Assembly: GCA_021397835.1 (NCBI GenBank) | Contig: JAJFZO010000781.1 | Location: 113,040 to 177,039 of the forward strand | Source: Moringa oleifera | Lineage: Eukaryota; Streptophyta; Magnoliopsida; Brassicales; Moringaceae | Reading direction: 5' to 3' | DNA: 64,000 bases | Shown here: piece by piece, positions 12,421 through 42,773 of the stretch | Layout of the letters: each line of letters opens with the position of its first letter | Numbering within the stretch: the stretch's first letter is position 1 | Notes under the pieces: model-generated | Databases searched by the model: none | What the model was told of the DNA's origin: nothing | What the model saw: the letters and a program-made list of their open reading frames with translations, nothing else | Made by a program: the position numbers and the translations under genes

Positions 12421-12851
12421 AGAAATTTTTGAGAGAGGAAGGAAAAGAGATAAGGGGAGGAGGAAGAAAGTGTGAAAGACATGAATTTTATTGTTTAAAT
12501 AAGGTACAAACGGTCATATTTAAAAAAAAACATGTTATATACATGTTTTAATTTTAAAACATGTTTTATAAATTAGGAAACTATACATGTAAACATGTAT
12601 AGTTTTCTGATTTAAATAAAAATAATAATTTATTAATTGATTTTTTATTTTTTAAAATTAAAATATTTTTAATTTTAAAATATTTAATTTAATACAATAT
12701 TTAAAATTCAAAATTTATTTAAAAAATTAAAAAAAATTAAAATTATAAACCTATAAATATATTTAAAAATAATATTGATCATTATAATTAGTAATTAATT
12801 TATATTAATGCTTACTAATGTTGACTATGGAAGCCGATGGAGGGTGAAATT
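12421..12851 (-). other. Intron-like A+T-rich segment of island A with tandem hairpins
   Basis: Between the two exon-like patches, on the same strand. Next to the downstream patch lies a purine-rich block (pyrimidine-rich on the minus strand), then very A+T-rich DNA with two adjacent inverted repeats at 12,541-12,605. Length, base bias and the polypyrimidine-AG end resemble a plant intron. This is inference: no transcript evidence exists, and a possible donor (GTAGGTGC near 12,868) is only a moderate match. Confidence 0.4.
12541..12605. repeat. Two adjacent short palindromes (hairpins)
   Basis: First inverted repeat at 12,541-12,564 has arms acatgtttt / aaaacatgt around a 6-bp spacer. The second at 12,578-12,605 has 13-bp perfect arms aaactatacatgt / acatgtatagttt around two bases. 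The copy at 52,409-52,479 keeps both, with an even more regular form. The truncated inverted copy at 39 kb lacks the region. Confidence 0.8.
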
Positions 12852-13418
12852 CTAATAGGATCTAGCACCTACTAGAAGCTGCAAGAACATTGGTGTCTGA
12901 AAGTTGCAGATGATCTCCAACTTGCAAGATGAGCCATGGAACCCTAGTTTAGAGATGAACATACGGTCATCACCTAGATAATGATGATGATAAAGACAAA
13001 GGATGCTAATGATGTTCCTGAATTCTGCTTCTTTTGAATTACGCTCTGATGTTCATCAAGAATGATTGACAAGACAAGTTGCTTTGTCATGAGCAAATCC
13101 ACTAAAGGTGAATCATGGGAAATTTCTATCGTGCTCTGTGAAGGTCCATACTCGAAAGAACCCCACATTGTGGGCGCAAAGTAAATGTTTTATTGCCATG
13201 CTTACTGCTTGGAGGGTCTCCAATGGATGGTTATATGATGTGATTTGATGAGAAAATAATGGGTTTTGCTTCTGAGTGAGAAGTTCATCCCGCACAGAGG
13301 GATAGTAAATGACAAGGTGGTGAGAGAGAGAACGACCTAATTTGGATTCGAAAATCTTGAATCTGGTAATGGTATGCTCTGGATCTTGAAAATGAAAGAG
13401 ACTGCAAGATACACAGTT
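12852..13418 (-). pseudogene. Captured plant gene fragment, copy 1 (frame-broken)
   Basis: On the minus strand a frame is open from 13,418 to a stop at 13,113. It includes HTITRFKIFES, HHLVIYYPSVRDELLTQKQN and ETLQAVSMAIKHLL, then shifts at an extra G (run of four at plus 13,161-13,164). The shifted frame continues with GPSQSTIEISHDSPLVD and LSIILDEHQSVIQKKQNS to 12,974. Back in the first frame, EFRNIISILCLYHHHYLGDD and GSSCKLEIICNFQTPMFLQL follow to a stop at 12,852-12,854. These stretches recur in the copies at 38.3 and 52.7-53.3 kb with many third-position and conservative changes, so the fragment was once coding. I do not recognise the family. No start or promoter is visible. Confidence 0.6.
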
Positions 13419-14176
13419 CTATACTAGTCATGATGGAGGTCTTGTGGACCTAATCATTTTCATGGTTATGACCATGTTATTTTATCACTCACAAATGATA
13501 ATATCAACTCCTTTTTTATTAAAAAAACTATTTATTTATTTTATTAAATTAACACAAGATTATGATTCATTTAATATATATATATATATAATTATTTTAA
13601 GGAATTTTAAAGTCATCTTCACCATTTAATATATTAAATATGTATAATAATATTTTTAAGATATTAATATTAAATATATTATAAACTTAAAGTTTTAAAA
13701 AATATGAATATCAATAAATTTTATTTATATCATCATATTTTAAATTTAATAATACCTATTTATTAAAATTTAATATTGATTGATATTATTTTAATTTTAT
13801 TTTTAAACCAAAAAATTATATATATAAATAATACAATTTTAGATTTTATTTTAAATTCATACATTCCAATAAATATATAATTTAAAATTATTTATGATAC
13901 TATAATTAAAAAAATTTCAGTGTCGATAATATCATAATACTAATAAATTTTATCTAAAATATTTGAATTGATTAGAACACCATTTAATACTATAAGTCTC
14001 CAAAACATAAAAAGACTAATAAATCCTATTGTCAAGTTTTGTTTTTAGAAAAGAACTACATATGTGCATATAAGATTATTATTTTTTCACTATCACATTA
14101 CATAAGTAAAATTCAATATACTTAGTGAAAGTTAAATAATTGTTATTCAAACATTGAAAAAAAAAATAAGAGGGTG
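13419..14176. other. A+T-rich flank of island A
   Basis: Non-17-mer DNA shared with 37,785-38,300 (inverted) and 53,271-54,010. It includes a short ATGACCATG-type segment with an inverted repeat character, a (TA)n run at about 13,574-13,591, and long A/T stretches. An open frame at 13,444-13,629 is low-complexity and is not conserved as protein in the other copies. It could be intron or upstream sequence carried with the gene fragment. No function can be assigned. Confidence 0.5.
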
Positions 14177-14233
14177 TTTCAAGATGCTTTAACATCATGC
14201 TGCAAAGGTAATGCTTATTTATTAAACATGGTC
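14177..14233 (+). repeat. Boundary motif J, copy 2
   Basis: Same boundary sequence as at 11,420 (catgctgcaaaggtaatgct, then attaaacatggtcc), here following island A rather than element B. The forward array that follows begins with the same first units (atatgtgaagcctaattttt). Confidence 0.75.
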
Positions 14234-16827
14234 CAATTATATGTGAAGCCTAATTTTTTATTAAGTCGAATCAAATCTTATACTCAATTAGTTATTAATC
14301 TCAACGAATTGCTAGACCAAATGAATTGTTAAGTATGATTGATTATTAAGCTAAATTATATATTAGGCCTAATTTTTTTAGCCTAATTAACACATCCATT
14401 ATGCACAATTTATTCCTAAGTCTAATTTTTTTGCAGGTTTATACATGATATACCCAATTAATTATTAGACCTAATAAATTTTAGGTTCAACTAATCACTA
14501 TGTCTAATTATTTGTCTAGTTTAATTATATTTTATCCAAAATTTTATAAAATCCAATTATATATTAGACCTGATTATGTCATATGTCTAATTTTTTATAT
14601 CAAATTAATTTCACATTTAATTGTATCTTAGGCTATATAAGGTTGACCCAAGATATGCAAACTATTTTTTTGGGCTCTTGCATGTTACCTAATTAATTCA
14701 AGCATATTTAGCTCAATTAAATATTTGGTCCAACTAATTCTTAAACCCAATTAAATCACAGACTCAATTAATTGTTAGGACCAATTAATTATTCGGTCTA
14801 ATTAATTATTAAACTCAATTAAATCTTAGAAAAAAGTATTTATTAGGCACAACCAATTAACTTTTTTCTTAATTAATAAATGTTAGGCCCAATTAGTTAT
14901 TAAACATGAGGAATTATTATGCTCAATTATATCTTAAGTCTAATTATAATTTAGATTCATGCATGCTACGTCCAATTATATTTTAAGTCTAATTATACAA
15001 TAAGTCTTATCATTTATTATACTTTATTATATATTAAGCTCAATTAAATTTTAAGTCAAATTAATTCTTAATCACCATTAAATCTTGGATTTGATTAATT
15101 ATTAAGCCTAATTAATCATTTGATCCAATTATTGGCTCAATTATATTGCAAGCCCAAATATATCTTAGTTTTAGTTAATTATTATGCTCAAAAATTATTT
15201 TAGGCCCAATGGTATATGAGCCCAACTTAGGTCTAACTAATTTTTGTGAAAAATTTACATCTTAAGCCTAATTAATTATTAGATTAAATAACTTGCAAGA
15301 CCCAGTCATTTGTTAGGTTTAAAAAATTATTAAGCTCAACTATGTCTTAAGTTGAATATTTTATTTGGTCCAATTATACAGTCTATTTATCAAACTCAAT
15401 TATAAATTAAATCCAATTAAGTCTTCAGCTCAAATAATTATATAACCTAATTAATTGTTAGGTCTAATTAATTACTAGTATCAATTACACATTAAGCTCC
15501 ATTATTATAAGGCTTATTCTTTGGCTAAATTATACATTCAGCTCAATATTTTTTTTACGCGCAATTTAATCTTAGGCCTAATTAATTGTTTGGTTCAATA
15601 AATTATTTAGTTCAATTAACTACTAAGCTCAATTACATATTAGGCTTTTTTTTTAGCCCAATTAATATATGTTAGCCTTAATTTGCTCTTAGGCTGAATT
15701 ATTTGTGAATTTCATGCACTATATACTCAATTATACTTTCGATGCTATTATTAACTATTAGACCTAATTATATTGGGCCGAATTATTTGTGAGACTCAAG
15801 TCAAATCATAATTTCAGTCTAATTATATATCAGGTGCAATTTTTCTCCAGATCTATTTATAATTTAGATCCAATTATATCTTAGGCCCAAATTATTCTAA
15901 GGTTTAAATATTTGTTGCGCCCTTGCACATTAAGCCCAATTATATCTTAAATTCAAATAATTATTTATTCTAATTATATTTTAGCCACAATTATGTACTG
16001 AGCCTTTTTTTTTTTTTTGCCAAATAATATACTGAGACTAATTGTTCATTAAGATCAATATATTAAGACTTAGGCCCAATTAAATGTTAGTCTCAACTAA
16101 TTCTTAGGCAATTATTCATTAAGATCAATTATAATTAAGGCTATCTTTTTATTAAAACCCAATTTAATCTTAAGCTCAATCAATTGTTTGACCAAAAAAA
16201 TTGTAAAGCCCAATGAATTATTAGGCTCAATTACACATAAGGATAAAGTATTTATTAGGGTCATTTCATTCTTAGGTTCAATGATATATTAACCCTTTTT
16301 TTTAGTAGGCCAAATTAAATCTTAAGCTCAATAATTATTTGGCACAATGAGTTCTTTGGTACAATTAATTCTTAAGTCCAATTAATATATGTTAAGTTAA
16401 ATTATTTCTAAGTTTTATGCACAATAGATCTACTTATATCTTAGGCCATCTTATTTATTTTTAAGTGTAATTATGTATTAAGCTCATTAGGTTCTTAAAG
16501 GTAAATATATATTAAGTCCAATTATTTATTAAAATCAATTATATATTAAGTGAAATTTTTTTATTATTTACAATTATATTTTAAGCCCAACTAATTCTTA
16601 GGTATAATTAAATCTTAGGTCTAATTAATTATTAGGTCGAGTTAATTGTTAGGCCTAATTATTTACTAGGTCTATTTTGTTATCTAACTCATTTTAGTCA
16701 TAATTAAATTTTTACTCAACTAATTATTAGTCTTAATTAATTGTTGTACCTATCTAATCATGAAAAATCATTAATCGTTAGCCTTTATTACATCAAATAT
16801 AATTATATCTTTAGATCAATTTAATTA
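14234..16827 (+). repeat. 17-bp minisatellite array, forward
   Basis: Forward array of 2.6 kb. It is present in direct copies at 21,310-22,800 (from about 14,390 on) and 54,068-56,190, and inverted at 35,521-37,729. Shared rare units (cacatccattatgcacaatt near 14,384; gtgctattattaac-type units near 15,740) prove collinearity. No genes. Confidence 0.87.
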
Positions 16828-17310
16828 GTGTAAAAGTTTTATAAAATCTTGATATTTACCTCATGTTACTAATAAAATCATTATATTTAAAAAGTGATAA
16901 ATTGAACCTTGATCCATCAATTTAGTTTAAATTAAACCTTAACAAAAAATTTTAAAAATAAAGATGTTCATATTGAAGAGCTTACAGCAAATTTTGATGT
17001 GAAATTTTTTGACAAATATAAAGGAATATTCAAGCTACTGTCACAAAATTTTCATAATTTTTTGAGTAATTATGTTATTTTTGAAAATTTTTAACATTAC
17101 AAAATTTAAAATATATATATTTTTAGTGCTCAAAAAATTATAAATTTGTTGTATAAGATTTCTAGTTTGAATATCTCTAATTTTTAAATTTTTTGAGATA
17201 GTTTAATTTATACCAAATTGATAGATTAAGATTTGATTTATCACTTTTTGAACGTAAAGAATTGATTGATAATAGAGAATAAACATCGAGCTTTTATAGG
17301 ACCTTTGCTC
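16828..17310 (+). mobile_element. Fold-back MITE-like element, family C copy 1
   Basis: A 483-bp non-17-mer island with long terminal inverted repeats. The left end (gtaaaagttttataaaatct, then gatatttacctcatgttac) is complementary to the right end (gagaataaacatcgagcttt, then ataggacctttgctc), and the complementarity runs inward through atctatcaatttag / ccaaattgatagatt to near the middle. This copy lacks about 60 bp of the right inner arm present in the other three. There is no coding capacity. Superfamily is unknown. Confidence 0.75.
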
Positions 17311-18902
17311 ATTCAATTATTAGGGTTAGATATATTTTAGGCCTATTTTTAGGTTCAATATTTTTATTAGTCCCATTTATTTATTAAGCTCAATTATATA
17401 AGTCTAATTAATTACTAAATTTTACAATATATTAAGTCTAATTTTTATTTAACCCAATTAAATCTTTGTCTTAATTATTTTTTGGGCTAACAAATTGTTG
17501 TGCCCAATGAAGTATTTGGTCCAATTAATTATCAAGTTTAATCACATATTAGGCTCAATCATTTATTCAGTCCATTTTGTTCTTGAGCCTAATTAGATAT
17601 TACTTCCAATTTTAGTGCAATGAATTGTTTGGTCTAATTTATTGCTATGCTCAATTACATATTAGACCCAAATATTTTTATGATCCAATTAATTCATAGG
17701 CCTAATTAATATACATTAGGCTAAAATTTTCTTCATTATTTCTTAGTTTCATGCATGATAGACCTAATTGTATCTTTGATCTTATTAGTTATTATTAGAT
17801 CTAATTGTATTTTGGAACCAATTTATAAAACCTAATTTTATCTAGCTCTAGTTATAGTTTGGCCTAATTTGTTCGTAAGTCCTTTATTAGACTTATGCAT
17901 GTTAGGGTGAATACAATTACTAGGCCCAGTCATATATTAAATCTAATAAATTATTTGACCTTACTTGTTATTAGACCATCTTATTGTTAGACCTAATTAT
18001 ATATTAAGTTAAATTATTTATTAGTATTAATTATATATTAAGTCCCATTTTTATTAAACCGAAGTAAATTTTACACATAATTAGTCAATAAACTAATTAA
18101 TTATTAGGATAAATTATATCTTAAAACAAATGATTATTCAATAAAACTATATTTTAAGTCGAATCTAAGCCTATTTCATTCTTAACCCAATAATTTATTA
18201 GTTCCAATTATTTATTAAGCCAAAAATTTAATTAATTTTGATCAAATCTTAAGCTCAACTAATTATTAGGTAAACTAAATCTTAGGTCAATTAATTATTA
18301 ATCTCAAATAATTATTAGGTCAAATTAATTATTTAGGCTCAATTATTTGTTGTCAGCCCAATTAAGTCTATTACCTCAAGTTTAATGATATTCGACTCAT
18401 TACATTGTAGGCCCAATTATATATAAAACCTAATTATATCATATATCAATTTTTTTTAAGTTCAATTAGATTTTAGGCCCACCTAATTCCAAGTATCCTA
18501 GCTCATATTATTTACTAAGCTTAATTATATGTCGCATTATTTCTTAAACTCATGCACATTAGCCTCATTAATTCGGTCTCATTACTTTATAAGCCCAATT
18601 ATATCTTCAGGTAGACTATTTTTAGGCCTTATGCCTCACCATATTATGGCCAATTATTTATTAGGTCAAATTATATATTAAGCCTAATTTATATTATATC
18701 CAATCAAATCTTAAGGTTAATTATTTACAAGGCCTAATGAATCTTAGGTCCAATTAATTGTTAGAATCAAATATATATTTAGCCCAATTAAAGTTTGGGT
18801 TTAATTAATAAATGTTAAACCCAATTAGTTATTCGGCTCAATTAATCTTTATGTGTAATTATATTTTATATTCAATTATAATTTGGGTTCAATAAATTGT
18901 TA
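17311..18902 (+). repeat. 17-bp minisatellite array, forward
   Basis: Forward array between C1 and B2. It is mirrored by 33,161-34,976 and, as a second inverted copy, by 26,540-28,248. Parts recur in direct orientation at 62,010-62,520 and 62,630-63,070. No coding sequence. Confidence 0.87.
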
Positions 18903-20080
18903 ATTATAAATTACTGCCTTGATTTAATTATACTTATTCATGTGAATACCAACCAAGTGCACATAAAAAGAAAAAAAATTAATTTTAATTTTAAATAATT
19001 TATTTAAAAAATTAAGTGTAATATTAACATTTATCATTATCAATTTTGAAATTTTCAATTCAAAACAAATGAATTTGAAGAGCTAATTAAATAGGAATTT
19101 TGCAAAGCAAAAAAATGGAACAAAGGTTATGAAAACCATATTTGAGTCTTTCTTTCATAATTTTGAAATATGAAGGGAAACAATTTCAAATATAAATTTA
19201 AATTAAACTATATTTCGAGTTTGAGATGATTAACTCAATAATACACTAATAACAAGCTAATCAATCAACAACTAACTCTCTCTAACACAAAAAATAAAAA
19301 TACAAAATCATGGCTTACACGGCTTAATTTTAAAAAATTAAATGATATTATAGATCACCGGATTAGTGAAAAAGGTTAATCTAAAATTATTATATTCTTT
19401 TTTATATCCTTATTCTTATGTTTGATTGAAAGATAATATGAAAATTATTTAATTTTAAATTTAATTATATTTCATAAAGTTTAATATTTTTAATATTATG
19501 TAATTTTATCGAGAATAAGATTCAATAATTTAATAATTAATATTAAGATAAAGATCAAAATAAACTTTATATTATTCACATTTTTCAATCAAGTTCTTAT
19601 AATTTTTTCACGCCAACTCTACACATAAAATATCTATTTCGTCTAAATTGACTTACTTTTAATTTTTTTTTATATACAAGCAATTCAAATTAGTGACTTA
19701 TACAACGGATTTTTATTTTAAATTTGTAACAAACACGAAAAATTATATAGTAAAAAAGTCAAAATTTTTGGGTATTGAAAATATATATTTTTTAAAACTT
19801 TTATATTAAATTTTTTTTAAAAATTGTGAAAATAACTTTACTACTAAAGAAATTTCTAAAAATATTTTTGATGGTAGCTTGAATATTTATTTACATTTTT
19901 TACAAATTTCAACACATATTTCGTTGTACAATATCTTTTATTTGAATAATTTATTCAAAAAATTAAAGGTGATATTTAATTTAGACTAATTAAAAAGTTT
20001 ATATGTAAAATTGATAAAAAAAATATATAAACTTGAGTAAAAATCTCAAATAGTACAATTCAATAAGTTTAATATTTTAA
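18903..20080 (+). mobile_element. Element B copy 2 with long left extension
   Basis: The fold-back core lies at about 19,571-20,050 (ttcaatcaagttcttataat on the left against aaacttgagtaaaaa on the right; core gatggtagcttgaatattt). To its left about 650 bp of unique A+T-rich DNA is also present at 32,450-33,160 (inverted) and 50,115-50,515, including gtgaataccaaccaagtgca and a segment rich in ctaatcaatcaacaactaac. No conserved frame is seen. Only the last part of boundary J remains at 20,080-20,092, so the right end has lost about 0.3 kb relative to copies at 10.7 and 50.1 kb. Confidence 0.65.
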
Positions 20081-20092
20081 TAAACATGGTCC

Positions 20093-23000
20093 AATTCTAT
20101 GGGAAGCCTAATTTCTTATTAAACCCAATCAAATCTTATGCTCAATTGGTTATTAATGAATCCCAACAATTTTCTAAACCAAATGAATTGTTAAGTACAA
20201 TTAATTCTTAGGCTTAATGATGTATTAGGCCCAACTATATTTTAAGTTTAATTAAAATTTGAGTCCAATTATATCTTAGGCTTAATTTGTTCCCTAGTTC
20301 AATTATTTTTTGAGCTCATGCATGCTAGGTCCAATTAATTATTAGTCCTATTATTTTTAAATTTAATTAATTATTAGATTCAATTATATTTTTGATTTAA
20401 TTTTATACTGAGTTCATTTAATTTCTAGTTAAAATTATATATTAAGCCTTTATTAGGTTCAATTATATATTAAACTTAATTTTTAATTGGATGCAATTAA
20501 TTCTTAGTTACAATTAAATCTTAAACTCAAGTAAGTCTGTCTCAATTAATAATTAGGTTAAATTAACTATTGGTTTATTTATATTTTAAATTCAATTAAT
20601 TATTAGATCCAATCATATTTTTGATCGAATTATATATTAAGCCTAATTATTTGTTAGGATTAATTATATATTAAACTCAATTTTTTATTGACCGCAATTG
20701 ATTCTTAGGTACAATTAAATCTTAACCTCAATTAAATATTCATTCCAATTAATTATTAGGTCAAATTAATTTTGGGCTCAATTGCATCTTACACCTACTT
20801 AATTGTAAAGCTTATTTCATTCTTAGGCCTAATTATATATTAAGCTCAATTATATGTTAGGCTTAATTAATGAAGTTCAATTATTTATAAGGTATGATTA
20901 TGTATTAAGTCTAATTATCATTTAAGCCTGACTATATCTAGGCTAAATTCATTCTTTGGCCAATTTATTTATTGGACCTATGCATGCTAGGCCTAATCAT
21001 TTATTAAGCTCAATTATATATCAAACTCATTATTTTTTTATTAAACTTAATTAAATCTTAAGTTTAATTATTTTTGGCCCAGTGAATTGTTAGGTCTAAT
21101 TAGTTATTAGACCCAATTTTGCATTAAGTTTAATTTTTAATTAGACTCAATTAAATCTTAGGCCAATCAATTTTTAGTCACAATTAAATCTTAGGCATAA
21201 TTCATTGTTTGACAAAATGAATTGTTTGGTTCAATTAACTGTTAGGCTAAATTACATCATAAACCCAATTATTTGTAGCACAATTAATTCTTAGATCCAA
21301 TTAATATATGTTTGGCTAAACTTGCACAATTTATTTCTAAGTCTAATTTTTTTGCGAGTTTATACGAGATATACCCAATTAATTATTAGATCTAATAAAT
21401 TTTAGGTTTAACTAATTACTATGTTTAATTATTTGTCTAGTTTAATTATATTTTATCCAAAATTCTATAAAATCCAATTATATATTAGACCTAATTATAT
21501 CATATGTCTAATTTTTTGTATCAAATTAATTTCACATTTAATTATATCTTAGGCTATGTAAGTTTGACCTAAATATATGCAAACTATTTTTTTGGGCTCA
21601 TGCATGTTACCTAATTAATTTGGGCATATTTAGCCCAGTTTTAGATTAGACACAATTAAATATTTGGTCAAACTAATTCTTAAACCCAATTAAATCACAG
21701 ACTCAATTAATTGTTAGGACCAATTAATTATTTGGTCCAATTAATTGTTAAACTCAATTAAATTTTTTAAAAAATATTTAATAGGCACAACCAATTAACT
21801 TTTTCCTTAATTAATAAATGTTAGGCCCAATTAGTTATTAAACATAATGAATTATTATGCTCAATTATATCTTAAGTTTAATTATAAAATAAGTCTTATA
21901 ATTTATTATGTTTTATTATATATTAAGCTCAATTTTTTATTAGACTCAATTAAATTTTAAGTCAAATTAATTCTTAATCATAATTAAATATTGGATTCAA
22001 TTAATTATTAGGCCTAATTAATCATTTGATCTAATTATTAGGCTCAATTATATTGCAAGCCCAAATATATCTTAGTTGTAGTTAATTATTATGCTCAAAA
22101 ATTATTTTAGGCCCAATGGTATATGAATCCAACTTTGGTCTAACAAATTCTTGTGAAAAATTTACACCTTAGGCCTAATTAATTATTAGATTAAATTATT
22201 TGCAAGACCCAATCATTTGCTAGGTTTAAAAAATTATTTGGCTCAACTATATCTTAAGTCCAATATTTTATTTTGTCAAATTATATAGGTTATTTATCAT
22301 GCTCAATTACAAATTAAATTCAATTAAGGCTTCGGTTCAAATAATTATTTAACCCAATTAATTATTAGGTCTAATTAATTATTAGGCTTAATTGCACATT
22401 AAGCTCCATTATTATTAGGCTTATTCTTAGGCCAAATTATACATCCAGCTCATTATTTTTTTTATGCGTAATTTAATTTTAGGCCTAATTAATTATTTGG
22501 TTCAATAAATTATTTAGTTATCTACTAAGCTCAATCACATATTAGGCTTTTTTTTTAACCTGATTAGTATATGTTAGCCTTAATTTGCTCTTAGACTGAA
22601 TTATTTCTGAATTTTATGCACTATATACTCAATTATACCTTCGGTGCTATTATTAACTATTAGACCTAATTATACTGGGCCAAATTATTTGTGAGACTCA
22701 AGTCAAGTTATAATTTTGGTCTAATTATAAATCAGGCGCAATTTGTCCAGAAGTTTAATTATAATTTGGATCCAATTATATCTTAGGCCCAAATTGGACT
22801 AAATAATTATTTCTAAATTTTGTGCATAATAGATCTAATTATATCTTAGACCATCTTATTTGTTTTCAAGCCTAATTATGTATTAAGCTTAAAGATAATT
22901 ATATATTAAAGGTAATTATATATTAAGTCTAATTATTTATTAGAATCAATTATATATTGAGCCATTTTTTTATTATTTGTAATTAAATTTTAAACCCAAC

Positions 23001-23202
23001 TAATTCTTAGGTATAATTAAATCTTAGATTTAATTAATTATTAGGCCTAATTATTTATATCTAACTCATTTTAGTCATAATTAAATTTTTACTTAATTAA
23101 TTATTCGATTTAATTAATTGTTATACCTATCTAATCATGAAGTCATTAATTGTTAGGCTTTATTACGTCAAATGTAATTATATCTTTAGATCAGTTTAAT
23201 TA
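20093..23202 (+). repeat. 17-bp minisatellite array, forward
   Basis: Forward array of 3.1 kb. The first 330 bp match 11,475-11,800 and 51,309-51,640. About 20,560-21,000 matches 45,880-46,300, and 21,310-22,800 is a direct copy of 14,390-15,900. Variant units with catgcatgctagg (20,318) and catgcatgttacc (21,600) occur. No genes. Confidence 0.87.
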
Positions 23203-26165: not shown

Positions 26166-26174
26166 TTTAATTGT
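26166..26174. other. Centre of giant inverted repeat
   Basis: Forward units ending in aattaaattttaggcccaa are followed at once by reverse units (gatttaattgtgtatgaaaa, then atagttgggcctaagattta). Comparing the two sides outward, the right arm retains about 50 bp more near the axis (about 26,175-26,210) than the left, so the axis is a short asymmetric deletion rather than a perfect dyad. The spacer is essentially absent. Confidence 0.7.
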
Positions 26175-26179
26175 GTATG

Positions 26180-28248: not shown

Positions 28249-28788
28249 GGGTAAAGATACTGTAAAAGCTTGATATTTACTCCATGTTATCAATCAAACC
28301 TTCATGTTTCAAAAGTAACAAATCAAACCTTAATCTATCAATTTAGTCTAAATTAGATATTGTTAAAAAATTTAAAAAATGGAAGTACTCAAATTGAAGA
28401 TCTTATACAACGAATTTGGATTTGAATTTTTTTATAGATGTAAAAAAAATCAAAGTACTCTCACAAAAAGTTTCATGATTTTTTGAGTACTAAAAATATA
28501 TATTTTAAATTTTTTAATATTAAAAATTTTAAAAAATAGTATAATTACATAAAAAATTATGAAATTTTTTGTGATGGTAGCTTGAATATTCTTTTACATT
28601 TATAAAAAATTTCATATCAAAATTTATTGTAAGCTCTTCAATATGAATGTCTTTATTTTTTTAATTTTTTGATAAGGTTTAATACAAACTAAATTGATAG
28701 ATCAAGATTGGATCTGTAATTTTTTAAATATAATGGTTTCATTAGTAACATGAGATAAATATTAAAGTTTTATAAAACCTTTACCCTA
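28249..28788 (-). mobile_element. Fold-back MITE-like element, family C copy 3
   Basis: Mirror copy of the element at 23,203-23,746. It has ends gggtaaagatactgtaaaag and tataaaacctttaccct and the same inner complementary halves. Because it sits at the mirrored position, it was probably present before the inversion duplication rather than inserted independently. No coding capacity. Confidence 0.75.
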
Positions 28789-31738
28789 GTTAAATTGATC
28801 TAAAAATATAATTACATTTGATGTAATGAAGCCTAACAATTATTGACTTCATGATTAGATTGGTATGATAATTAATTAAGTGTAATAATTAATTGAGTAA
28901 AAATTTATTTATTACTAAAATGAGTCAAAACAATGAAATAGACATAATAAATAATTAGGTCTAACAATTAACTCGACCTAATAACTAATTAGACCTAAGA
29001 TTTAATTATACCTAAGAATTAGTTAGGCTTAAAATTTAATTACAAGTAAATTTTTTTTATTTAATATATAATTATCTTTAAGAACCTAATGAGCTCAATA
29101 CATAATTAGACTTAAAAACAATTGGATCTAACAATTAATTAGATTTAAGATATAATTGAGCTTAATAATTAATTGGACTTAATGTGCATGGATCCAACAA
29201 CTAATTGAACTTAATTGAGCCTAAGATATAATTGGACCTAAATTATAACTTAGCCTAGAAGTAAATAAGATGGCCTAAGATATAATTTGGCTCAAGAACA
29301 AACTTAGCCTAACATACATTAACTGGGCTAAAGAATTAATTAAACCAAAGAATTTATTGCGCCAAATAACTTATTGAGTATAAGATTTAATTTGGCCTAA
29401 TAAAAAAAATGACATATCATTGAACTTAAGAATGAAATGATCATAACAAATAATTTGTCCTAATGTGTAATTAAACCTAATAATTCGTTGAGCCTACCTA
29501 TTCATTTGGTCAAACAATTGATTGAACTTAAGATTTAATTGGGTTTTAATAACAAATAGCGTTAATTATAATTGAACTTAATATATAATTGCCTAAGAAT
29601 TAGTTGGGACTAAAATTTAATTGGGCTAAGTCTTAATATATTGATCTTAATGAATAATTAAGCTTAGTATATAATTGGGCATAAAGAAAAAACAAGCTTA
29701 GTACATAAGTGTGGATAAAATATAATTGAACAAAATAATTATTTGAATTTAAGATATAATTGGGCTTATTGTGCAATGGCACAACAAATATTTAAACCTT
29801 GAAACAATTTGGGTCTAAGATATAATTGGATCCAAATTATAATTAGATCTAAGGACAAATTATTCCTGATATACAATTGAACTGAAATCATAATTTGATT
29901 TGAGTCTCACAAATAATTCAGCCCAATATAATTAGGTCTAATAGTTAATAATAGCACCAAGGTATAATTGAGTATATAGTGCATGAAATTCATAAATAAT
30001 TCAGCCTAAGAGCAAATTAAGGCTAACAAATATTAATTGTGCTAAAAAAATTAGGTCTAATATGTAATTGAGCTTAGTAGTTAATTGGACTAAATAATTT
30101 ATTGAACCAAATAATTAATTAGGCCTAAGATTAAATTGTGTGTAAAAAAAAAAATATTGAGCTTAATGTATAATTTGGTCTAAGAATGAGCTTAATAATA
30201 ACTAAGCTTAATGTATACTTGAGCCTAATAATTAATTGAACCTAACAATTAATTAGGTTAAATAATTGTTTGAGTTGAAGATTTAATTGGATTTAATTTG
30301 TAATTGAGCATGATAAATAAACTATATAATTAGACCAAATAAAATATTGAACTTAAGATATAGTTGAGCCTAATAGTTTTTTGAACCTAGCAAATGATTA
30401 GGTCTTGCAAGTAATTTAATCTAATAATTAATTAGGCTTAAGATGTAAATTTTTCACAAAAATTAGTTGGACCAAAGTAGGGCTCATATGCCATTGGGCC
30501 TAAAATAATTTTTCAGCATAATAATTAACTAAAACTAAGATATATTTGGGCTTGCAATATAATGAGCCCAATAATTAGATCAAACGATTAATTAGGCCTA
30601 ATAATTAATTGAATCCAAGATTATTTGTGATAAAAATTAATTTGACTTAAAATTTAATTGAGCTTAATAAAGAATTAAGCTTAATATATAACAAAGTATA
30701 GTAAATTACAAGGCTTATTTTATAGTTAGATTTAAGATATAATTGGGCGTAGCATGCATGAATCCAAATTATAATTAGACTTAAGATATAATTGAGTGTA
30801 ATAATTCATGATGTTATATAATTAATTGGGCCTAACATCTATTATTAAGGAAAAATATAATTGGTTGTGCCTAATAAATACTTTTTTCTAAGATTTAATT
30901 GAGTTATCAATTAATTAAATTGTTATTAAAAATTTTGGCTTAATATGTAATTGGTTCACTTAAATAAATTGAACTTAATGTAAAAATTGGCTAGCAATAA
31001 ATAAGGTCTAGGATTTTGATTGGGTCTAATAAAAAATTAAACTAATAAATAATTGACCTTAACATATAACAAGGTCTAAGAACTGAATTGACCTAATAAT
31101 TTACTAAGGATAAGATTTATTTGAGTCTAACACTTAGTTGGCCTAATAATTAATTACACCTAAAATTTAATTGTGCCAAAGTTTGGGCTAAGATTTATTT
31201 AAGCCTAATGAAAAGTAGACTAAATATATTATTGATCCTAATAAATAATAATGCATAATATATAATTGGATCTAAGAAAAAACTGAGCATCATACATAAT
31301 TTGGCCTAAAATATAATTAAATTTAATAATTAATTAGATTTAAGATATAATTGAGTCCATAATTAATTGGACCTAGAAACAAACTGGACTAAGATATAAT
31401 TGGATTCAAATTTAATTGGACTTAAGATATATTTTAGGTGTATAAATAATTGGATCTAATAATTAATTGAATTTAAAAATAATAAGGCTAATAATTAATT
31501 GGACCAGCATGCATGGGCTCAAAAAATAATTGAACTTGGGAACAAATTAAGTCTAAAATATAATTGGACTCAAATTTTAATTAAACTTAAAATATAATTG
31601 GGCCTAATATATAATTAAGCCTAACAATCAATTGTACTTAAAAATTCATTTCGTCTAGAAAATTGTTGGGATTAATTAATAACCAATTGAGCATAAGATT
31701 TGATTGGGCTTATTAAAAATTAGGCTTCACATAGAATT
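28789..31738 (-). repeat. 17-bp minisatellite array, reverse
   Basis: TAATTG-sense array. About 29,940-30,860 mirrors 21,770-22,660, and 31,400-31,738 mirrors 20,093-20,420. The segment at about 31,000-31,400 has no clear mirror partner. Boundary J follows on the right. No coding sequence. Confidence 0.86.
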
Positions 31739-31797
31739 GGACCATGCTTAATAAATAAGCATTACCTTTGTAGCATGATGTTGGAGCATCTTGAAAC
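31739..31797 (-). repeat. Boundary motif J, copy 3 (inverted)
   Basis: Reverse complement of J (accatgcttaataaataagc, then attacctttgtagcatgatg). The array leading away from it runs leftward, so in the motif's own orientation the array still starts immediately after J. Confidence 0.75.
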
Positions 31798-33160
31798 TTA
31801 GGTGATTTTTGTTTTTTTTAAATATAAAAATGAGATATGCTAAATTTATTTTACAAACCATTTCATCAAATTTTGTTTGGTAACTTTTTAATTGTAAAGA
31901 TTTAAGTAACACTATTTTATATCATTTATATTATTTCTTTTATATTTTATCATATATTATAGTAATATTAAAATATTTAAACTTATTAAATAGCACTACT
32001 TGAGATTTTTAATCAAGTTTTTATATTTTTTTATCAATTTTACATATAAACTTTTTAATTAATAAAAATTAAATATTCCTTTAATTTTTTAAATAAATTA
32101 ATCAAATAAAAGATATTGTATAGTGAAATATGTGTTGAAATTTATAAAAAATGTAAATAAATATTCAAGCTACCATCAAAAACATTTTTGAAATTTTTTC
32201 GGTAGTAAAGTTATTTTCATAATTTTTAAAAAAATTTTAATATAAAAATTTTAAAAATATATATTTTCAATACTCAAAAATTTTTAATTTTTGTAATATA
32301 TTTTTTCATGTTTGTTACAAATTTAAAATTAAAATTTGTTGTACCAATCACCAATTGAATTGCTTGTATATAAAAAAATTAAGAGTAAGTCAATTTAGCT
32401 GAAATAGATATTTTATGTGTAGAAATCGTTTGAAAAAATTGTAAGAACTTGATTGAAAAATGTGAATAATATAAAGTTTATTTTGATCTTTATCTTAATA
32501 TTAATTATTAAATTATTGAATCTTATTCCCGATAAAATTATACAGTATTAAAAATTACAATTAAATATATTAAACTTTATGAAATATAATTACATTTAAA
32601 ATTAAATAATTTTCATATTTTCTTTCAATCAAACATAAGAGTAAGGATATAAAAAAGAATATAATAATTTTAGATTAACCTTTTCACTAATCCAATAATT
32701 TATAATATCATTTAATTTTTTAAAATTAAGCCATATAAATCATGATTTTTTTTATTTTTATTTTTTGTGTTAGAGAGAGTTGTTGATTGATTAGCTTGTT
32801 ATTAGTGTATTATTGAGTTAATCATCTCAAACTCGAAATATAATATAATTTATATTTATATTTGAAATTGCTTCTCTTCATATTTTAAAATTATGAAAGA
32901 AAGACTCAAATATGGCTTTCATAACCTTTGTTCTATTTTTTTACTTTGCAAAATTCCTATTTAATTAGCTCTTCAAATTCATTTGTTTTGAATTAAAAAT
33001 TTCAAAGCTGATATTTATATATATTAATATTACACTTAATACTTTTTAAATAAATTATTTAAAATTAGAATTAAAGTTTTTTTTTCTTTTTGTGTGCACT
33101 TGGTTGGTATTCACATGAACAATCATATAATTAAGTCAAGGCAGTAATTTATATTAACAA
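31798..33160 (-). mobile_element. Element B copy 3 with full extension (inverted)
   Basis: Longest copy of the B island, on the minus strand: the part next to J (as at 11,100-11,419), the fold-back core at about 31,980-32,450 (gatggtagcttgaata in minus sense), and the 650-bp extension ending at gttcatgtgaataccaacca in minus sense. It is the mirror of 18,903-20,080 but more complete, so the left-arm copy has suffered a deletion. No open frame of coding character. Confidence 0.65.
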
Positions 33161-34976
33161 TTTATTGGACCCAAATTATAGTTGAACATAAAATATAATT
33201 ACCCGTAAAGATTAATTGAGACGAATAACTAATTGGGTTTAATATTTGTTAATTAAATCCAAACTTTAATTGGACTAAATATGTATTTGATTCTAACAAT
33301 TAATTGGACCTAGGATCCATTAGGCCTTATAAATAATTAACCTTAAGATTTGATTGGATATAATATAAATTAGGCTTAACATATAATTTGACCTAATAAA
33401 TAATTGGCCATAATATATGGTTAGGCATAAGAACTAAACTGACCCAATAGATAATTAGGCTTAAGGTTTAATTGAGTTTAACAATTGATTGGCCCTAATA
33501 ATTAATTAAGCTTTAGATTTATTTGTTTTAAAAAATTAGTTGGGCCTTATAAAATATTGGGATGAATATATAATAAGGCTTAAAAATAGTCCAGCTAAAG
33601 ATATAATTAGGCTTATAAAGTAATAAGGCTGAATTAATGAGGCTAATGTGCATAAGCCCAATAAATAATTCAACATATAATTAGGCTTAATAAATAATAT
33701 GAGCTAAGACATAATTGAACTTAAAAAACATGACATATGATATAATTAGGTTTTATATATAATTGGGCATACGATGTAATGAGTCGAATATAATTAAACT
33801 TGAGGTATTAGACTTAATAAATAACTTGAACTTACACATAATTAAGCCTAGTATGCATTAGTCCAAGATATAACAAGGCTTAATATTATTGGATCGAATA
33901 ATTATTATGCTTATCATACATGAACCCAAGAAATAATTGGGCAGACAACAAATAATTGAGCTTAAATAATTAATTTGACCTAATAATTATTTGAGATTAA
34001 TAATTAATTTATTATAATAATTAATTGACCGAAGATTTAGTTCACCTAATAATTAGTTTAGTTTAAGATTTAATCAAAATTAATTAAATTTTTGGCTTAA
34101 TAAATAATTGGAACTAATAAATTATTGGGTTAAGAATGAAATAGGCTTAGATTCGATTTAAAAATATAGTTTTATTAAATAATAATTTGTTTTAAGATAT
34201 AATTAATCCTAATAATTAATTAGTCTATTGACCAATTGGGTGTAAAATTGACTTCGGTCTAATAAAAATGGGACTTAATATATAATTAGGTCTAAGAATG
34301 AAATGATCTAATAACAAGTAAGGTCAAATGATTTATTAGATTTAATATATAACTGGGCCTAGTAATTACATTTACCCTAACATGCATAAGTCTAATAAAG
34401 GACTTACAAATGAATTAGGCCAAACTATAACTAGAGCTAGATATAATTAGGTTTTATACATAATTAGTTTTAAAATATAATTAGATCTAGTAATAAATAA
34501 TAAGATCAAAGATACAATTGGGTCTATTATGCATGAAATCAAGAAATAATGAATAAAAATTTTAACTTAATATATATTAGTTAGGCCTAAGAATTAATTG
34601 GATCATAAAAATATTTAGGTCTAATATGTAACTGAGCATAACAATAAATTGGACCAAACAATTCATTGCACTAAAATTAGGAGTAATATCTAATTAGGCT
34701 CAAGAACAAAATGCACTGAATAAATGATTGAGCCTAATGTGTAATTAAACTTAATAATTAATTTGGACCAAACAATTCATTGGGCACAACAATTTGTTAC
34801 TCTAAAAAATAATTAAGACAAAGATTTAATTGGGTTAAATAAAAATTAAGCTTAATATATAGTAGAATTTAGTAATTAATTGGGCTTATATAATTGAGCT
34901 TAATGCATAAATGGGACTAATGAAAATATTGAACATAAAAATAGGCCTTAAATGTATATGAGTCTAATAATTAAAT
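33161..34976 (-). repeat. 17-bp minisatellite array, reverse
   Basis: TAATTG-sense array mirroring 17,311-18,902, and a direct duplicate of 26,540-28,248 starting at a shared rare stretch (aaactttaattggactaaat / caactttaattggaccaaat). No genes. Confidence 0.87.
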
Positions 34977-35520
34977 GGGTAAATGACCTATTAAAGCTTG
35001 ATGTTTATTCTATGTTACCAATCAAACCTTTATGTTCAAAAAGTGATAAATCAAACATTAATCTATCAATTTGATCTAAATTAAATCTTATAAAAGAATT
35101 TAAAAATTGGAGGTATTCAAATTAGAGATCTTATACAACCAATTTGGACTTGAATTTTCTTTATAGATGTAAAGAAATATTCAAGCTACTGTCACAAAAA
35201 ATTTTATAATTTTTTGAGTACTAAAAATATACATTTTTAAATTTTATAATGTTAAATTTTTTAAAAAATAGCATAATTACTCAAAAAATTATGAATTTTT
35301 TTTGACGGTAGCTTGAATATTCCTTTACATTTGAAAAAAAAAATTTCACATAAAAATTTATTGTAAGCTATTAATATGAATACCTTTATTTTTTGAATTT
35401 TTTAATAAAATTTAATTTAAACTAAATTGATAGATCAAGGCTCAATTTGTCACTTTTTAAATATAATGGTTTCATTGGTAACATGAGGTAAATATCAATA
35501 TTTTATGAAACCTGTATCCT
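34977..35520 (-). mobile_element. Fold-back MITE-like element, family C copy 4
   Basis: Mirror copy of C1 (16,828-17,310) but without the 60-bp internal loss, so that deletion postdates the duplication. Ends: gggtaaatgacctattaaag and atgaaacctgtatcct. Inner inverted halves are retained (ctgtcacaaaaaattttata against attttttttgacggtagctt). Confidence 0.75.
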
Positions 35521-37728
35521 AATTAAATTTATCTAAAGATATAATTATATTTGATGTAATAAAGCCTAACAATTAATGACTTCATGATTAGATAGGTATA
35601 ACAATTAATTTAAGTCTAATAATTAATTGAGTAAAAATTTAATTATGACTAGAATGAGTTAGATAGCGAAATAGCCTAACAATTAACTCGATCAAATAGT
35701 TAATTAGATCCAAATTTAATTATACCTAAGAATTAGTTGGGCTTAAAATTTAATTACAAATAATTAAAAAAGTTGGCTTAATATATAATTGATTCTAATA
35801 AATAATTTGACTTAATATATAGTTACCTCTAAGAACCTAATGAGCTTAATACATAATTAGGCTTAAAAATAAATAAGATGGCCTAAGATATAATTACATC
35901 TATTGTGCATAAAACTTAGAAATAATTTAGCTCAAGAACAAATTTAGCCTAACATATATTAATTGGACTTAAGAATTAATTGTACCAAAGAATTCATTGC
36001 GCCAAATAACTTATTGAGCTTAAGATTTAATTTGGCCTAATTGAAAAAAAAAGGTTAATATGTCATTGAACTTAAGAATGAAATGACCCTAATAAATAAT
36101 TTATCCTAATGTGTAATTGAGTGTAGTAATTCGTTGGTCCTTACAATTTGTTTGGTCGAACAATTGATTGAGCTTAGAATTTAATTGGGTTTTAATTAAA
36201 AAATAACCTTAATAATAATTGAGCTTAATGAATAATTGCCTAAGAATCAGTTGGGACTAACATTTAATTGGGCCTAAGTCTTAACATATTGATCTTAATG
36301 AATAACTAGGCTTAGTATATAATTAGGCATAAAGAAAAAACAGGTTTAGGACATAATTGTGGCTAAAATATAATTGGACAAAACAATTATTTGAATTTAG
36401 TAGTTAATTGGACTAAATAATTTATTGAACCAAATAATTAATTAGGCCTAAGATTAAATTGCGCGTAAAAAAATATTAAGCTTAATGTACAATTTGGTCT
36501 AATAATTAATTGGACCTAGCAATTAATTGGGTTAAATAATTATTTGAGCTAAAGACTTAATTGGATTTAATTTTTAATTAAGCATGATAAATAAACTATA
36601 TAATTTGACGAAATAAAATATTAGACTTAAGATATAGTTGAGCCTAATAATTTTTTAAACCTAGCAAATGATTAGGTGTCGCAAGTAATTTAATCTAATA
36701 ATTAATTAGGCCTAAGGTGTAAATTTTTCACAAAAATTAGTTAGACCAAAGTTGGGCTCATATACCATTGGGCCTAAAATAATTTTTTAGCATAATAATT
36801 AACCAAAACTAAGATATATTTGGGCTTGCAATAAACTTGAGCCCAATAGTTGGATCATATGATTAATTAGCATAATAATTAATTGAATACAACATTTAAT
36901 TGTCATTAAGAATTAATTTGACTTAAAATTTAATTGAGCTTAATATATAATAAAGCATAATAAATTATAAGACTTATTTTATAATTAGACTTAAAATATA
37001 ATTGGACATACCATGCATGAATACAAATTATAATTAGACTTGAGCATAATAATTTATTATGTTTAATAACTAATTGGGCCTAACATTTATTAATTAAAGA
37101 AAAAGTTAATTGGTTGTTCCTAATAAATACTTTTTTCTAAGATTTAATTGAGTTTAACAATTAATTGGTCCTAACAATTAATTGAGTCTATGATTTAATT
37201 GGGTTTAAGAATTAATTGGACTAAATATTTAATTGTATACTTTAAAATTGGGCCAAATATGCCCAAATTAATTAGGTAACACGCATGAGCCCAAAAAAAT
37301 AGTTCGCATATATTTGAGTCAAACTTATATAGCCTAAGATATAATTAAATGTGAAATTAATTTAGTATAAAAAATTAGACATATGATATAATTAGGTCCA
37401 ATATATAATTGGATTTTATAAAATTTTGGATAAAATATAATTAAACTAGACAAATAATTAGACATAGTAATTAGTTGAATCTAAAATTTATTAGGTCTAA
37501 TAAATTGGGTATATCATGTATAAACCCGGAAAAAAAATTAGACTTAGGAATAAATTATGCATAATGGATGTGTTAATTGGGCTAAAAAAAATTTAGCCTA
37601 ATATATAATTTAGCCTAACAATCAATTATGCTTAACAATTCTTTAGTCTAGCAATTCATTGAAATTAATAACTAATTGAGCATAAGATTTGATTGGACTT
37701 AATAAAAAATTAGGTTTCACATGTAATT
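35521..37728 (-). repeat. 17-bp minisatellite array, reverse
   Basis: TAATTG-sense array mirroring 14,234-16,827. Parts duplicate 29,240-30,540 in direct orientation (shared run tcacaaaaattagttggacc / tcacaaaaattagttagacc at 30,450 and 36,730). Variant unit catgcatgaa near 37,013. No coding sequence. Confidence 0.86.
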
Positions 37729-37784
37729 GGACCATGTTTAATAAATAAGCATTACCTTTGCAGCATGATGTTAAAGCATCTTGA
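37729..37784 (-). repeat. Boundary motif J, copy 4 (inverted)
   Basis: Reverse complement of J (accatgtttaataaataagc, then attacctttgcagcatgatg), the mirror of copy 2 at 14,177. It joins the array to island A. Confidence 0.75.
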
Positions 37785-38300
37785 CATACCCTCTTGTATT
37801 TTTTCGATATTTGAATAACAATTATTCAATTTTCACTAAGTATATTAAATTTTGCTTATGTGATATGATAGTGAAAAAACAATAATCTTATATGCACATC
37901 TGTAGTTCTTTTTTAAAAATAAAACTTGACAATACGGTTTATTAGTCTTTTTATCAATATTAAATTTTAATGAATAGGTATTATTAAATTTAAAATTTAA
38001 AATGACATAAATGAAATTTATCGATATTCATATTTTTTAAAACTTTAAATTTATAATATATTTAATATTAATGTCTTAAAAATATTATTATACATATTTA
38101 ATATATTAAATGATGGAGATGACTTTAAAATTCCTTTAAATATATATATATATATTAAATGAATCATAATCTTATGTTAATCTAATAAAATAAATAAATA
38201 TTTTTTTCATGAAAAAGGAGTTGATATTATTATTTATGAGTGATAAAATAACATGGTCATATCCATGAAAATGATTAGGTCCACAGGACCTCCATCATGA
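37785..38300. other. A+T-rich flank of island A, inverted copy
   Basis: Mirror of 13,419-14,176 but about 240 bp shorter. It includes the (TA)n run at about 38,140-38,155. It leads into the gene fragment at 38,301. Nothing coding is recognisable. Confidence 0.5.
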
Positions 38301-38875
38301 CTGGTACAGGACTGTGTATCTTGCAGTCTCTTTCATTTTCGAGATCTAGAGCATACCATTACCAAATTCAAGATTTTCGAATCCAGATTATGCCGTTCTC
38401 GCACTCACCACCTTGTCATTTACTATCCCTTTGTGCGGGATGAGCTTTTCACTCAGAAGCAAAACCTATTACTTTCTCATGAAATCGCATCATATAATCA
38501 TCTATTGGAGACCCTACAAGCAGTAAGTATGGCAATAAAACATTTATTTTGCTCCCACAATGTGGGTTCTTTCAAGTATGGACCTTTACAGAGCACAATA
38601 AAAATTTCTCATGATTCACCTTTAGTGGATTGGCTCACAACAAAGTAGCTTGTCTTGTCAATCATTCTTGATAAACATCAGAGCGTAATTCAAAAGGAGC
38701 AGAATTTAGGAACATCATTAGCATCCTTTGTCTTTATCATCATCATTATCTAGGTGATGGCCGTATGTTCATCTCTAAACCAGGGTTCCATGGCTCATCC
38801 TGCAAGTTGGAGATCATCTGCAACTTCCAGACACCAATGTTCTTGCAGCTTCTAGTAGGTGCCAGATCTTATTAG
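38301..38875 (+). pseudogene. Captured plant gene fragment, copy 2 (best preserved)
   Basis: Open from just after a stop at 38,298-38,300 to a TAG at 38,646-38,648, about 115 codons without a clear start. Residues include HTITKFKIFES, HHLVIYYPFVRDELFTQKQN, ETLQAVSMAIKHLF and GPLQSTIKISHDSPLVDWLT. This copy lacks the extra G of copy 1, so these stay in one frame. The TAG replaces a CAA codon of copy 1, consistent with C-to-T decay; beyond it the frame goes on (LVLSIILDKHQSVIQKEQN). A second frame then continues with ISILCLYHHHYLGDG and GSSCKLEIICNFQTPMFLQL to a TAG at 38,873-38,875. The protein is not recognised; low-complexity or transposase motifs are not apparent. Confidence 0.62.
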
Positions 38876-39035
38876 AATCTCACCCTCCATCAGCTTTCAT
38901 AGTCAACATTAGTAAACGTTAATATAAATTAATTACTAATTATAATGATCAATATTATTTTAAATATATTTACAGCTTTATAATTTTTTAAATAAATTTT
39001 GATATAAAATTACATCATTTATATAATTGAACTAT
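38876..39035. other. Truncated intron-like end of island A and duplication junction
   Basis: Continues the mirror of 12,715-12,850, then stops near 39,005, before the tandem hairpins. About 30 bp of A+T-rich DNA follow, then the array that matches 7,445 on begins at ctgggctaatgtacattagg. This is the outer breakpoint of the giant inverted repeat. Confidence 0.6.
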
Positions 39036-42730: not shown

Positions 42731-42773
42731 AATCCACTTAAACAAATTGAATATCAATTTGTTTAAGTGGATT
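42731..42773. repeat. Perfect 20-bp inverted repeat (hairpin)
   Basis: Arms at 42,731-42,750 and 42,754-42,773 are exactly complementary, separated by ATA. The right arm (caatttgtttaagtggatt) is the ancestral sequence, also seen at about 48,125-48,143 and 25,592-25,610. The left arm is new: the homologous copies have ordinary array there. Confidence 0.9.

What the first reader, a model, noticed from the sequence alone, without database searches (positions are those of the whole stretch)
12715..39005. Giant inverted repeat with ~13-kb arms and almost no spacer
Seen directly: gene fragment, boundary J, elements C, B, C and arrays appear in order on the left and in mirrored order and strand on the right, meeting near 26,170. 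Such palindromes are unstable and usually arise by breakage-fusion, template switching or inverted duplication. The arms have since diverged (about 25 differences in 245 bp compared by eye over the gene fragment, near 90% identity), so the structure is old and has escaped arm-to-arm homogenisation. Transcription across it could form very long double-stranded RNA, a substrate for small-RNA production (inference).
Basis: partly seen in the sequence, partly recalled or inferred. Interest (0 to 1): 0.75.

Follow-up and report, generated by a model that had tools for sequence, protein, structure and literature searches.

The report
Inverted block in plant satellite array
The giant palindrome is real, but it lies in a long, AT-rich plant satellite array that switches strand repeatedly, and its two halves look like ordinary repeat units facing opposite ways rather than one segment copied backwards.

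Summary
The mirror symmetry is real: an inverted diagonal runs from 12,739 to 38,988 with its axis near 26,184, and non-array islands lie in order G-H-B-H | H-B-H-G. A second contig, C12, carries axis and right boundary at 98.7-98.9%, so assembly error is unlikely. The special reading fails. The window (23.75% G+C) is mostly an array of a degenerate 17-bp motif in long units. The same island order occurs in direct orientation about 27-29 kb upstream. The left arm is closer to that unit than to its mirror (90.9 vs 86.0%, 19 of 23 tiles); the right arm is equally distant from both. The mirror is the best match for 11 of 54 tiles. In 4 of 4 C84 copies checked, both halves of the axis match C84 better than each other. 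Nine strand switches occur in 124 kb of C45 and eight in 120 kb of partly allelic C12; one switch type is itself repeated at 82-91%. The arrays look (peri)centromeric; not shown. Closest precedent: Tribolium 'macro-dyad symmetries'. No dsRNA evidence was obtained.

The parts
12739..26184 (+). Left arm: forward-oriented unit G-H1-B-H2-E of the 17-bp array
   Evidence: direct copy upstream in C45
26185..38988 (-). Right arm: reversed block; islands in the order H-B-H-G, truncated in G; its inner part (27.2-30.9 kb) best matches left 14.8-18.4 kb, not the mirror position
   Evidence: G lacks the part equivalent to 12301-12738
25834..26535 (.). Axis: 350-bp imperfect inverted repeat, 82.9%; the + to - switch lies near 26,184-26,201. 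Both halves resemble the end of segment E
   Evidence: allele at C12:8490299-8491298, 98.7%
38989..39053 (.). Right boundary: truncated G joined to forward array that resembles the + side of junction J from about 39,033
   Evidence: in the held DNA of C45 and C12 only this locus and its C12 copy match across it at 500 bp or more
12301..14100 (+).
37801..38988 (-). Element G, right copy, truncated
52051..54000 (+). Element G, third copy, direct
18901..20100 (+). Element B, left copy
31801..33150 (-). Element B, right copy
16801..17250 (+). Element H1, left; the H family is itself an imperfect inverted repeat
23251..23700 (+). Element H2, left
28201..28800 (-). H element at the H2 position, right; does not group with H2 copies
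34951..35550 (-). Element H1, right
24800..26163 (+). Segment E, with direct copies at 42.0-43.3 kb (86%) and 47.5-48.6 kb (85%, part)
4802..7401 (-). Smaller reversed block of the same array; its right edge is the recurrent - to + junction J (7,402)
39002..64000 (+). Forward-oriented array to the right (apart from about 200 bp near 61.0 kb), with further copies of E, B and G

Best explanation
The 26.2-39.0 kb block is a stretch of a large, AT-rich satellite array that lies in reverse orientation beside forward units of the same kind. Shown: the array is built on a degenerate 17-bp motif; at least two forward units carry islands in the order G-H1-B-H2-E; strand switches are frequent; the reversed block is no closer to its neighbour than to another forward unit; the two halves of the axis are closer to copies on another contig than to each other; axis and right boundary are present on two contigs. 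Inferred: the reversal arose by recombination or template switching between the many oppositely oriented repeats of the array, with loss and patchwork at its edges (G is truncated, and turning the block back would not give a joint seen in the forward units). Later long duplications copied units and, with them, some strand switches. Also inferred, and weaker: the arrays are centromeric or pericentromeric, because they sit inside large contigs, several contigs end in or near them, and no protein-coding gene was recognised in the parts read.
For: 17-bp periodicity (peaks at lags 17, 34, 51); about 40 motif sites per kb on one strand against 1.4 in one letter shuffle of the window. Nine strand switches in 124 kb of C45, eight in 120 kb of C12. 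Island order repeated directly upstream. Left arm closer to that direct unit in 19 of 23 tiles; right arm a tie, 11 of 21. Mirror best in 11 of 54 tiles. Left half of the axis 86.7-88.8% and right half 84.9-89.6% identical to four C84 copies that show no switch, against 82.9% to each other. Junction J in four further places at 82-91%. C12 copy spanning the axis, 98.6% over 14,564 columns. 520 genome matches to a 24-base motif with up to 2 mismatches, 0 for the reversed control.
Against: The mirrored collinearity is more than twice that of any other centre in the held DNA, so this is the largest such symmetry seen here, not a typical one. In the core of G the arms are closer to each other than to two of the direct copies. 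The inner right H does not group with the other H2 copies (it falls with the H1 side at 0.937), so the right block is not a clean reversed copy of the whole unit, and more than one event is needed. The upstream G is partial and rearranged. Low G+C alone does not mark the array: short samples of C12 outside it range from 16.5 to 35.6%. No chromatin or cytological support for (peri)centromere.
Confidence: 0.75

Rival explanations
1. Fold-back (inverted) duplication: a replication fork or broken end switched template near 26.18 kb and copied the ancestor of the left arm backwards; direct duplication of the left unit came later.
For: Mirrored order and a 350-bp fold-back at the axis. The G tree, with the right copy sister to a clade of direct copies, also fits if direct duplication followed the fold-back; G-core distances put the arms closer to each other than to two direct copies.
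Against: Both halves of the axis are closer to four C84 copies than to each other, where a fold-back should leave them closest. The mirror is best for only 11 of 54 tiles. Most of E (24.0-25.8 kb), which a fold-back would have copied first, has no good mirror partner, though an E-like piece lies off the diagonal at 30.9-31.7 kb, 76%. Right B does not group with left B; the inner right H does not group with left H2.
Confidence: 0.15
2. Assembly artefact: two haplotype or repeat copies were joined head to head at 26.18 kb.
For: Repetitive DNA at the end of a 177-kb contig (one search shows other contigs ending near such arrays).
Against: C12 carries the axis (98.7% over 1,001 bp) and the right boundary (98.9% over 1,001 bp), with about 1-1.5% divergence of its own and one unbroken alignment of 14,564 columns across the axis.
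Confidence: 0.03
3. The symmetry is maintained by selection: long dyad symmetries with recurrent switch points help to organise (peri)centromeric chromatin, as proposed for Tribolium satellites.
For: Recurrent junction J; many switches; the proposal and conserved inversion sites in PMC13081366 (passages).
Against: J copies lie in duplicated array segments, so their similarity needs no selection. C12 lacks 3.5 kb including the 4.8-7.4 kb reversed block beside J, so a switch can be absent. Arms are unequal and mosaic.
Confidence: 0.08
4. A hairpin-RNA locus: read-through of the palindrome yields long dsRNA and small RNAs.
For: None obtained; only the geometry.
Against: No expression data were available and no promoter scan was run; the only RNA test was Rfam at gathering thresholds, with no match in the window. 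Arms of about 74-92% identity would pair imperfectly.
Confidence: 0.03

Closest known systems
Macro-dyad symmetries of major and minor satellites in Tribolium madens, T. freemani and T. castaneum (PMC13081366; 12 of 26 places read as passages)
   Same: Satellite subarrays in opposite orientation form palindrome-like structures of several to tens of kb, with recurrent conserved inversion sites, in putative (peri)centromeres.
   Different: There the satellites derive from a ~110-bp element, arrays mostly hold two subarrays and tend towards equal lengths. Here the motif is a degenerate 17 bp inside units of tens of kb with interspersed elements, in a plant, with irregular switches. The paper says such symmetries were so far documented only in Tribolium; the one later paper found with the term (PMC13427858) has it only in its reference list.
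Plant centromeric tandem repeat arrays (e.g. Salicaceae, PMC12046899; passages only)
   Same: Centromere-associated repeat arrays with higher-order units and inversions between haplotypes.
   Different: The centromeric monomer named there is 156 bp (Palv156), and monomers of 50 bp or less were not analysed. No CENH3 data exist here.
Inverted (fold-back) duplications from template switching or breakage-fusion (recalled, general knowledge)
   Same: Mirrored order without spacer.
   Different: The arms, taken tile by tile, are not each other's closest relatives here.

Membership tests
Satellite macro-dyad symmetry (Tribolium type) | Long subarrays of one satellite in opposite orientation meeting at a switch | tested here: met
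   Orientation map and segmentation
Satellite macro-dyad symmetry (Tribolium type) | Recurrent, conserved inversion sites | tested here: inconclusive
   J (- to +) recurs at 82-91% in four further places, but within duplicated segments. The 26.18-kb axis: (40 of 1,040 candidates scored) the full 401-bp probe matches in one piece only in the window and C12, besides their own reverse complements; partial matches across the axis on C84 (83%) and C563 (76%) exist, and the C84 one and three others on C84 show no strand switch; C563 not checked
Satellite macro-dyad symmetry (Tribolium type) | General symmetry of arm lengths across arrays | tested here: not met
   Reversed blocks of at least 400 bp held whole in C45 measure about 1.5, 2.7, 2.6 and 12.8 kb between forward stretches of about 13-27 kb
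Centromeric satellite | One island per chromosome, internal | tested here: inconclusive
   Listing cut at 100 of 520 matches. For C2, C12 and C25, where the ordered list appears complete, the 8, 33 and 10 matches each fall in one interval of at most 200 kb; contig lengths; contigs are not whole chromosomes
Centromeric satellite | CENH3 binding | not testable with these tools
   needs ChIP or CUT&Tag
Fold-back inverted duplication | Arms are each other's closest relatives | tested here: not met
   B tree. The G tree is compatible with a fold-back followed by direct duplication
Hairpin small-RNA locus | Transcription across the axis and arm-specific small RNAs | not testable with these tools
   no expression data

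The most novel reading that the evidence does not exclude
A plant has independently evolved satellite macro-dyad symmetry: one array per chromosome of a very degenerate 17-bp repeat, kept alive by duplication of units of tens of kb, in which recurrent strand-switch junctions are functional parts of (peri)centromeric chromatin.
Probability: 0.1. Interest if true: 0.7.

Novelty: new member of a known kind. Interest (0 to 1): 0.33.

Why it matters
It shows how a striking palindrome can follow from array architecture alone: where units share one order, a reversed unit makes a 'giant inverted repeat' with its neighbour. The array is a useful case for satellite evolution: neighbouring 17-bp monomers are strongly diverged (48% identity at lag 17), while left-arm tiles match a forward unit about 27 kb away at a mean of 90.9%. 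That points to long-range duplication and not monomer-level homogenisation as the dominant recent process (inference). If the arrays prove centromeric, it would extend macro-dyad organisation to a plant.

Tried and rejected
Protein origin of the 'gene fragment': Pfam gave nothing above its cut-offs for two frames, nor for a frame of another G copy in C12 (protein 2), and the right copy's frame found no relative (1 candidate, none scored). RNA families: no Rfam match at gathering thresholds in the window. Telomere fusion as cause of the palindrome: the telomere-like stretch lies at 2.0-3.3 kb, away from the axis, and has CCCTAAA-type before TTTAGGG-type repeats, the reverse of the order expected for fused telomere ends (expectation recalled). 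The block beside J as a transposed element: the C12 allele lacks window 3876-7378 with a blunt joint and no target-site duplication, and the upstream unit is continuous across the place equivalent to 3876, so a deletion in C12 is more likely. A similar switch on C84: the partial axis matches there carry no switch in the four loci held. Telomere positions: the listing (100 of 475 matches) filled almost wholly with one locus and was not informative. Species: a nuclear HIR gene (L037) is at best about 91% identical to plants such as Prunus, Dovyalis and Persea, but the intact matK on C232 is 96% identical to a grass, so the species was not settled. Literature: seven searches; in their listings and the passages read I saw no degenerate 17-bp plant centromere array, but most papers were seen only as listings and most subscription papers are not held.

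Full report
What the window is. The window is C45:113040-177039, the last 64 kb of a 177,039-bp contig in a 279.5-Mb, 669-contig assembly. The genome is a plant: a 6-kb sample of C12 carries a hypersensitive-induced-response gene (recognised by eye; its relatives are plant HIR proteins). The window has 23.75% G+C, against 35.6% in that genic sample; but other short samples of C12 outside the array have 16.5 to 35.5%, so low G+C alone does not mark it. Most of the window is an array of a degenerate 17-bp motif with the consensus CCAATTATTTATTAGGC. Base-to-base identity peaks at lags of 17, 34 and 51 (0.478, 0.424, 0.388 against a median of 0.319 in 39.1-50 kb). In array stretches about 40 sites per kb score above threshold on one strand, against 1.4 per kb in one letter shuffle of the window.

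Self-comparison gives a chain of inverted matches from 12,739 to 38,988 with the axis at about 26,184. A scan of possible centres (steps of 250 bp) finds 11,074 bp with a collinear inverted partner at this axis and at most 4,680 bp at any other centre more than 1.5 kb away in 124 kb of C45. In 120 kb of C12 the allelic axis has 11,016 bp and the next 4,706 bp. This is well above the repeat background.

It is unlikely to be an assembly error. Keeping alignments above 95% and 500 columns, C12:8,471,712-8,528,926 matches window 7,379-64,000 in order and orientation, in pieces of 97.5-98.9% identity with small gaps between them, one of them of 14,564 columns across the axis (98.6%). In the held DNA of both contigs, a 1-kb probe over the right boundary finds only the window and its C12 copy (98.9%). 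A 1-kb probe over the axis finds the window, its C12 copy (98.7%), their reverse complements (83%) and one 535-column match of 75.7% to its right part (pieces of 500 or more). C45 is probably the other haplotype of C12: two B copies and one G copy near the start of C45 lie at a constant offset from copies in C12, and that offset changes by about 96 kb before the window, so C45 would be longer there (positions; of C45:1-53040 only a 4-kb locus was fetched, so this is inference).

The two arms are not a closed pair. Cut into 54 tiles of 500 bp, the region 12.5-39.5 kb has its mirror partner as best non-self match in C45 in 11 tiles, one of them the axis. For most left-arm tiles the best match is a forward unit at window coordinates -16.6 to -0.5 kb, which carries G (partial and rearranged), H1, B, H2 and E in the same order. 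In a three-way test the left arm is closer to that direct unit than to the right arm (mean 90.9 against 86.0%; higher in 19 of the 23 tiles with both matches, out of 27; p = 0.0026). The direct unit shows the same (88.5 against 83.2%; 23 of 28, out of 34). The right arm is equally distant from both (86.8 against 87.1%; 11 of 21, out of 25). Matches in this test could lie anywhere in the other unit. The two halves of the axis are both like the end of segment E, but each is closer to four copies on contig C84 (left half 86.7-88.8%, right half 84.9-89.6%) than to the other half (82.9%); these four C84 loci show no strand switch.

Trees of single elements. The tree of G (16 sequences: 10 from held C45 and C12 and 6 further loci, out of 62 matches listed) puts the right copy next to a clade of the left copy and three direct copies (that clade 0.988; both together 0.995). 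In the B tree (12 sequences) right B does not group with left B but, weakly, with a copy at -49.0 kb (0.803). In the H tree right H1 falls with upstream H1 copies (0.714) and left H2 with other forward H2 copies (supports 0.76-0.81). The inner right H, at the H2 position, falls with the H1 side (0.937) and not with H2, and the left H1 copy was dropped by the length filter. This agrees, where the inner right part 27,214-30,917 best matches left 14,799-18,364 (82.7%) and not its mirror position (about 80%). The right block is thus a patchwork, not a clean reversed copy of the whole unit.

Divergence. K2P between arms is 0.072 for G and 0.083 for B. Between the left copy and direct copies in C45 it is 0.063-0.118 (G) and 0.071-0.106 (B), and 0.134 for a reversed B copy at -58.8 kb. 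The arms therefore lie within the range of other copies. In the 700-bp core of G the arms (0.080) are closer to each other than to two direct copies (0.143, 0.147), which counts towards shared ancestry of the two G copies. Transitions outnumber transversions (57 to 12 in G, 62 to 29 in B), and CpG is depleted (0.35 of expectation against 0.47 in the one genic sample), which would fit methylated heterochromatin (inference).

Strand switches are normal here. Segmentation by motif orientation, counting blocks of 400 bp or more, gives nine switches in 124 kb of C45 and eight in 120 kb of C12; the two palindrome switches are allelic and counted in both. Of the oriented array, 21.3 of 98.6 kb in C45 and 20.7 of 87.3 kb in C12 are reversed relative to the rest. 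One junction type, J (reverse to forward, at 7,402), recurs in four further places of C45 and C12 at 82-91% over 1.6-2.0 kb, so such switches have been copied with the segments that carry them. The right boundary of the palindrome joins a truncated G at 38,988 to array that resembles the forward side of J from about 39,033. The C12 haplotype lacks 3,503 bp (window 3876-7378), including the reversed block beside J, with a blunt joint.

How it probably arose. Where units share one order, a reversed unit beside a forward one makes a mirror image with no spacer. The account I favour is reversal of array sequence by exchange or template switching between its many opposite repeats, with patchwork and loss at the edges, followed by duplication of forward units. 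Turning the block back would join E to a truncated G on the left and an array segment to J-like array on the right, neither of which I saw in the forward units, so the history has more than one step. A fold-back of the ancestor of the left unit followed by direct duplication remains possible but is disfavoured by the axis comparison.

Where such arrays lie. A 24-base motif with up to two mismatches has 520 matches in the genome and none for the reversed control. The listing stops at 100 matches; ordered by mismatches and then contig, it appears complete for C2, C12 and C25, where 8, 33 and 10 matches each fall in one interval (7.424-7.529, 8.350-8.549 and 7.666-7.708 Mb of contigs of 10.5, 8.7 and 9.6 Mb; lengths). 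Listed G and B copies on C12, and G copies on C25, lie in or beside these intervals; a G match on C1 was not checked for motif. In the 244 kb held of C45 and C12 the longest open frame has 170 codons, and of five frames scanned against Pfam one matched, a reverse transcriptase. I infer (peri)centromeric satellite; it is not shown.

Comparison. The nearest published case I found is Tribolium madens and two congeners, with inverted satellite subarrays of up to tens of kb and conserved inversion sites in putative (peri)centromeres; the authors state that such symmetries were so far documented only in Tribolium (PMC13081366, passages). The present case shares opposite subarrays and a recurrent switch site, but differs in the very short degenerate motif, the long mosaic units, the irregular block lengths and the kingdom. 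I rate it a new member of a known kind, of modest interest; the palindrome itself needs no special explanation.

Noticed in passing
window 2000-3300: Degenerate telomere-like repeats, CCCTAAA-type followed by TTTAGGG-type, turning at about 2,610; window 2198-3875 matches C12 at 96.8%.
   Followed up: partly
window 3876-7378 against C12:8471711/8471712: A 3.5-kb presence/absence difference between the two contig copies that removes a reversed block; blunt joint without target-site duplication.
   Followed up: yes
window 7402; C45 window coordinates about -38.0 and -22.4 kb; C12:8531.2 and 8553.1 kb: A recurrent reverse-to-forward array junction, 82-91% alike.
   Followed up: partly
window 10737-16650 and 50554-56514: A 6-kb direct duplication at 84% identity that includes element G.
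   Followed up: partly
C45:19000-112000 against C12 near 8467000: The C45 haplotype appears about 96 kb longer than C12 in this array, judging from positions of repeat copies.
   Followed up: no
C563:4059296-4059627: A partial match (76%) that runs across the sequence of the palindrome axis; strand orientation there was not examined.
   Followed up: no
C232:42629-43636 (L067): The only matK match over the whole model without stops is grass-type (96% to Streptostachys), while the nuclear gene sampled is closer to non-grass plants: a contaminant plastome or a mixed sample is possible.
   Followed up: partly
C584, about 0.02-1.56 Mb: Dozens of mostly stop-bearing partial matK matches on one contig: probably a very large cluster of nuclear plastid DNA.
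   Followed up: no
C12:8556954-8557430: A reverse-transcriptase fragment (PF00078, E 1.2e-19) at the edge of the array.
   Followed up: no
C42:169401-170723: Part of element G (its positions about 735-1040) is tandemly repeated on C42; C519 shows the same.
   Followed up: no
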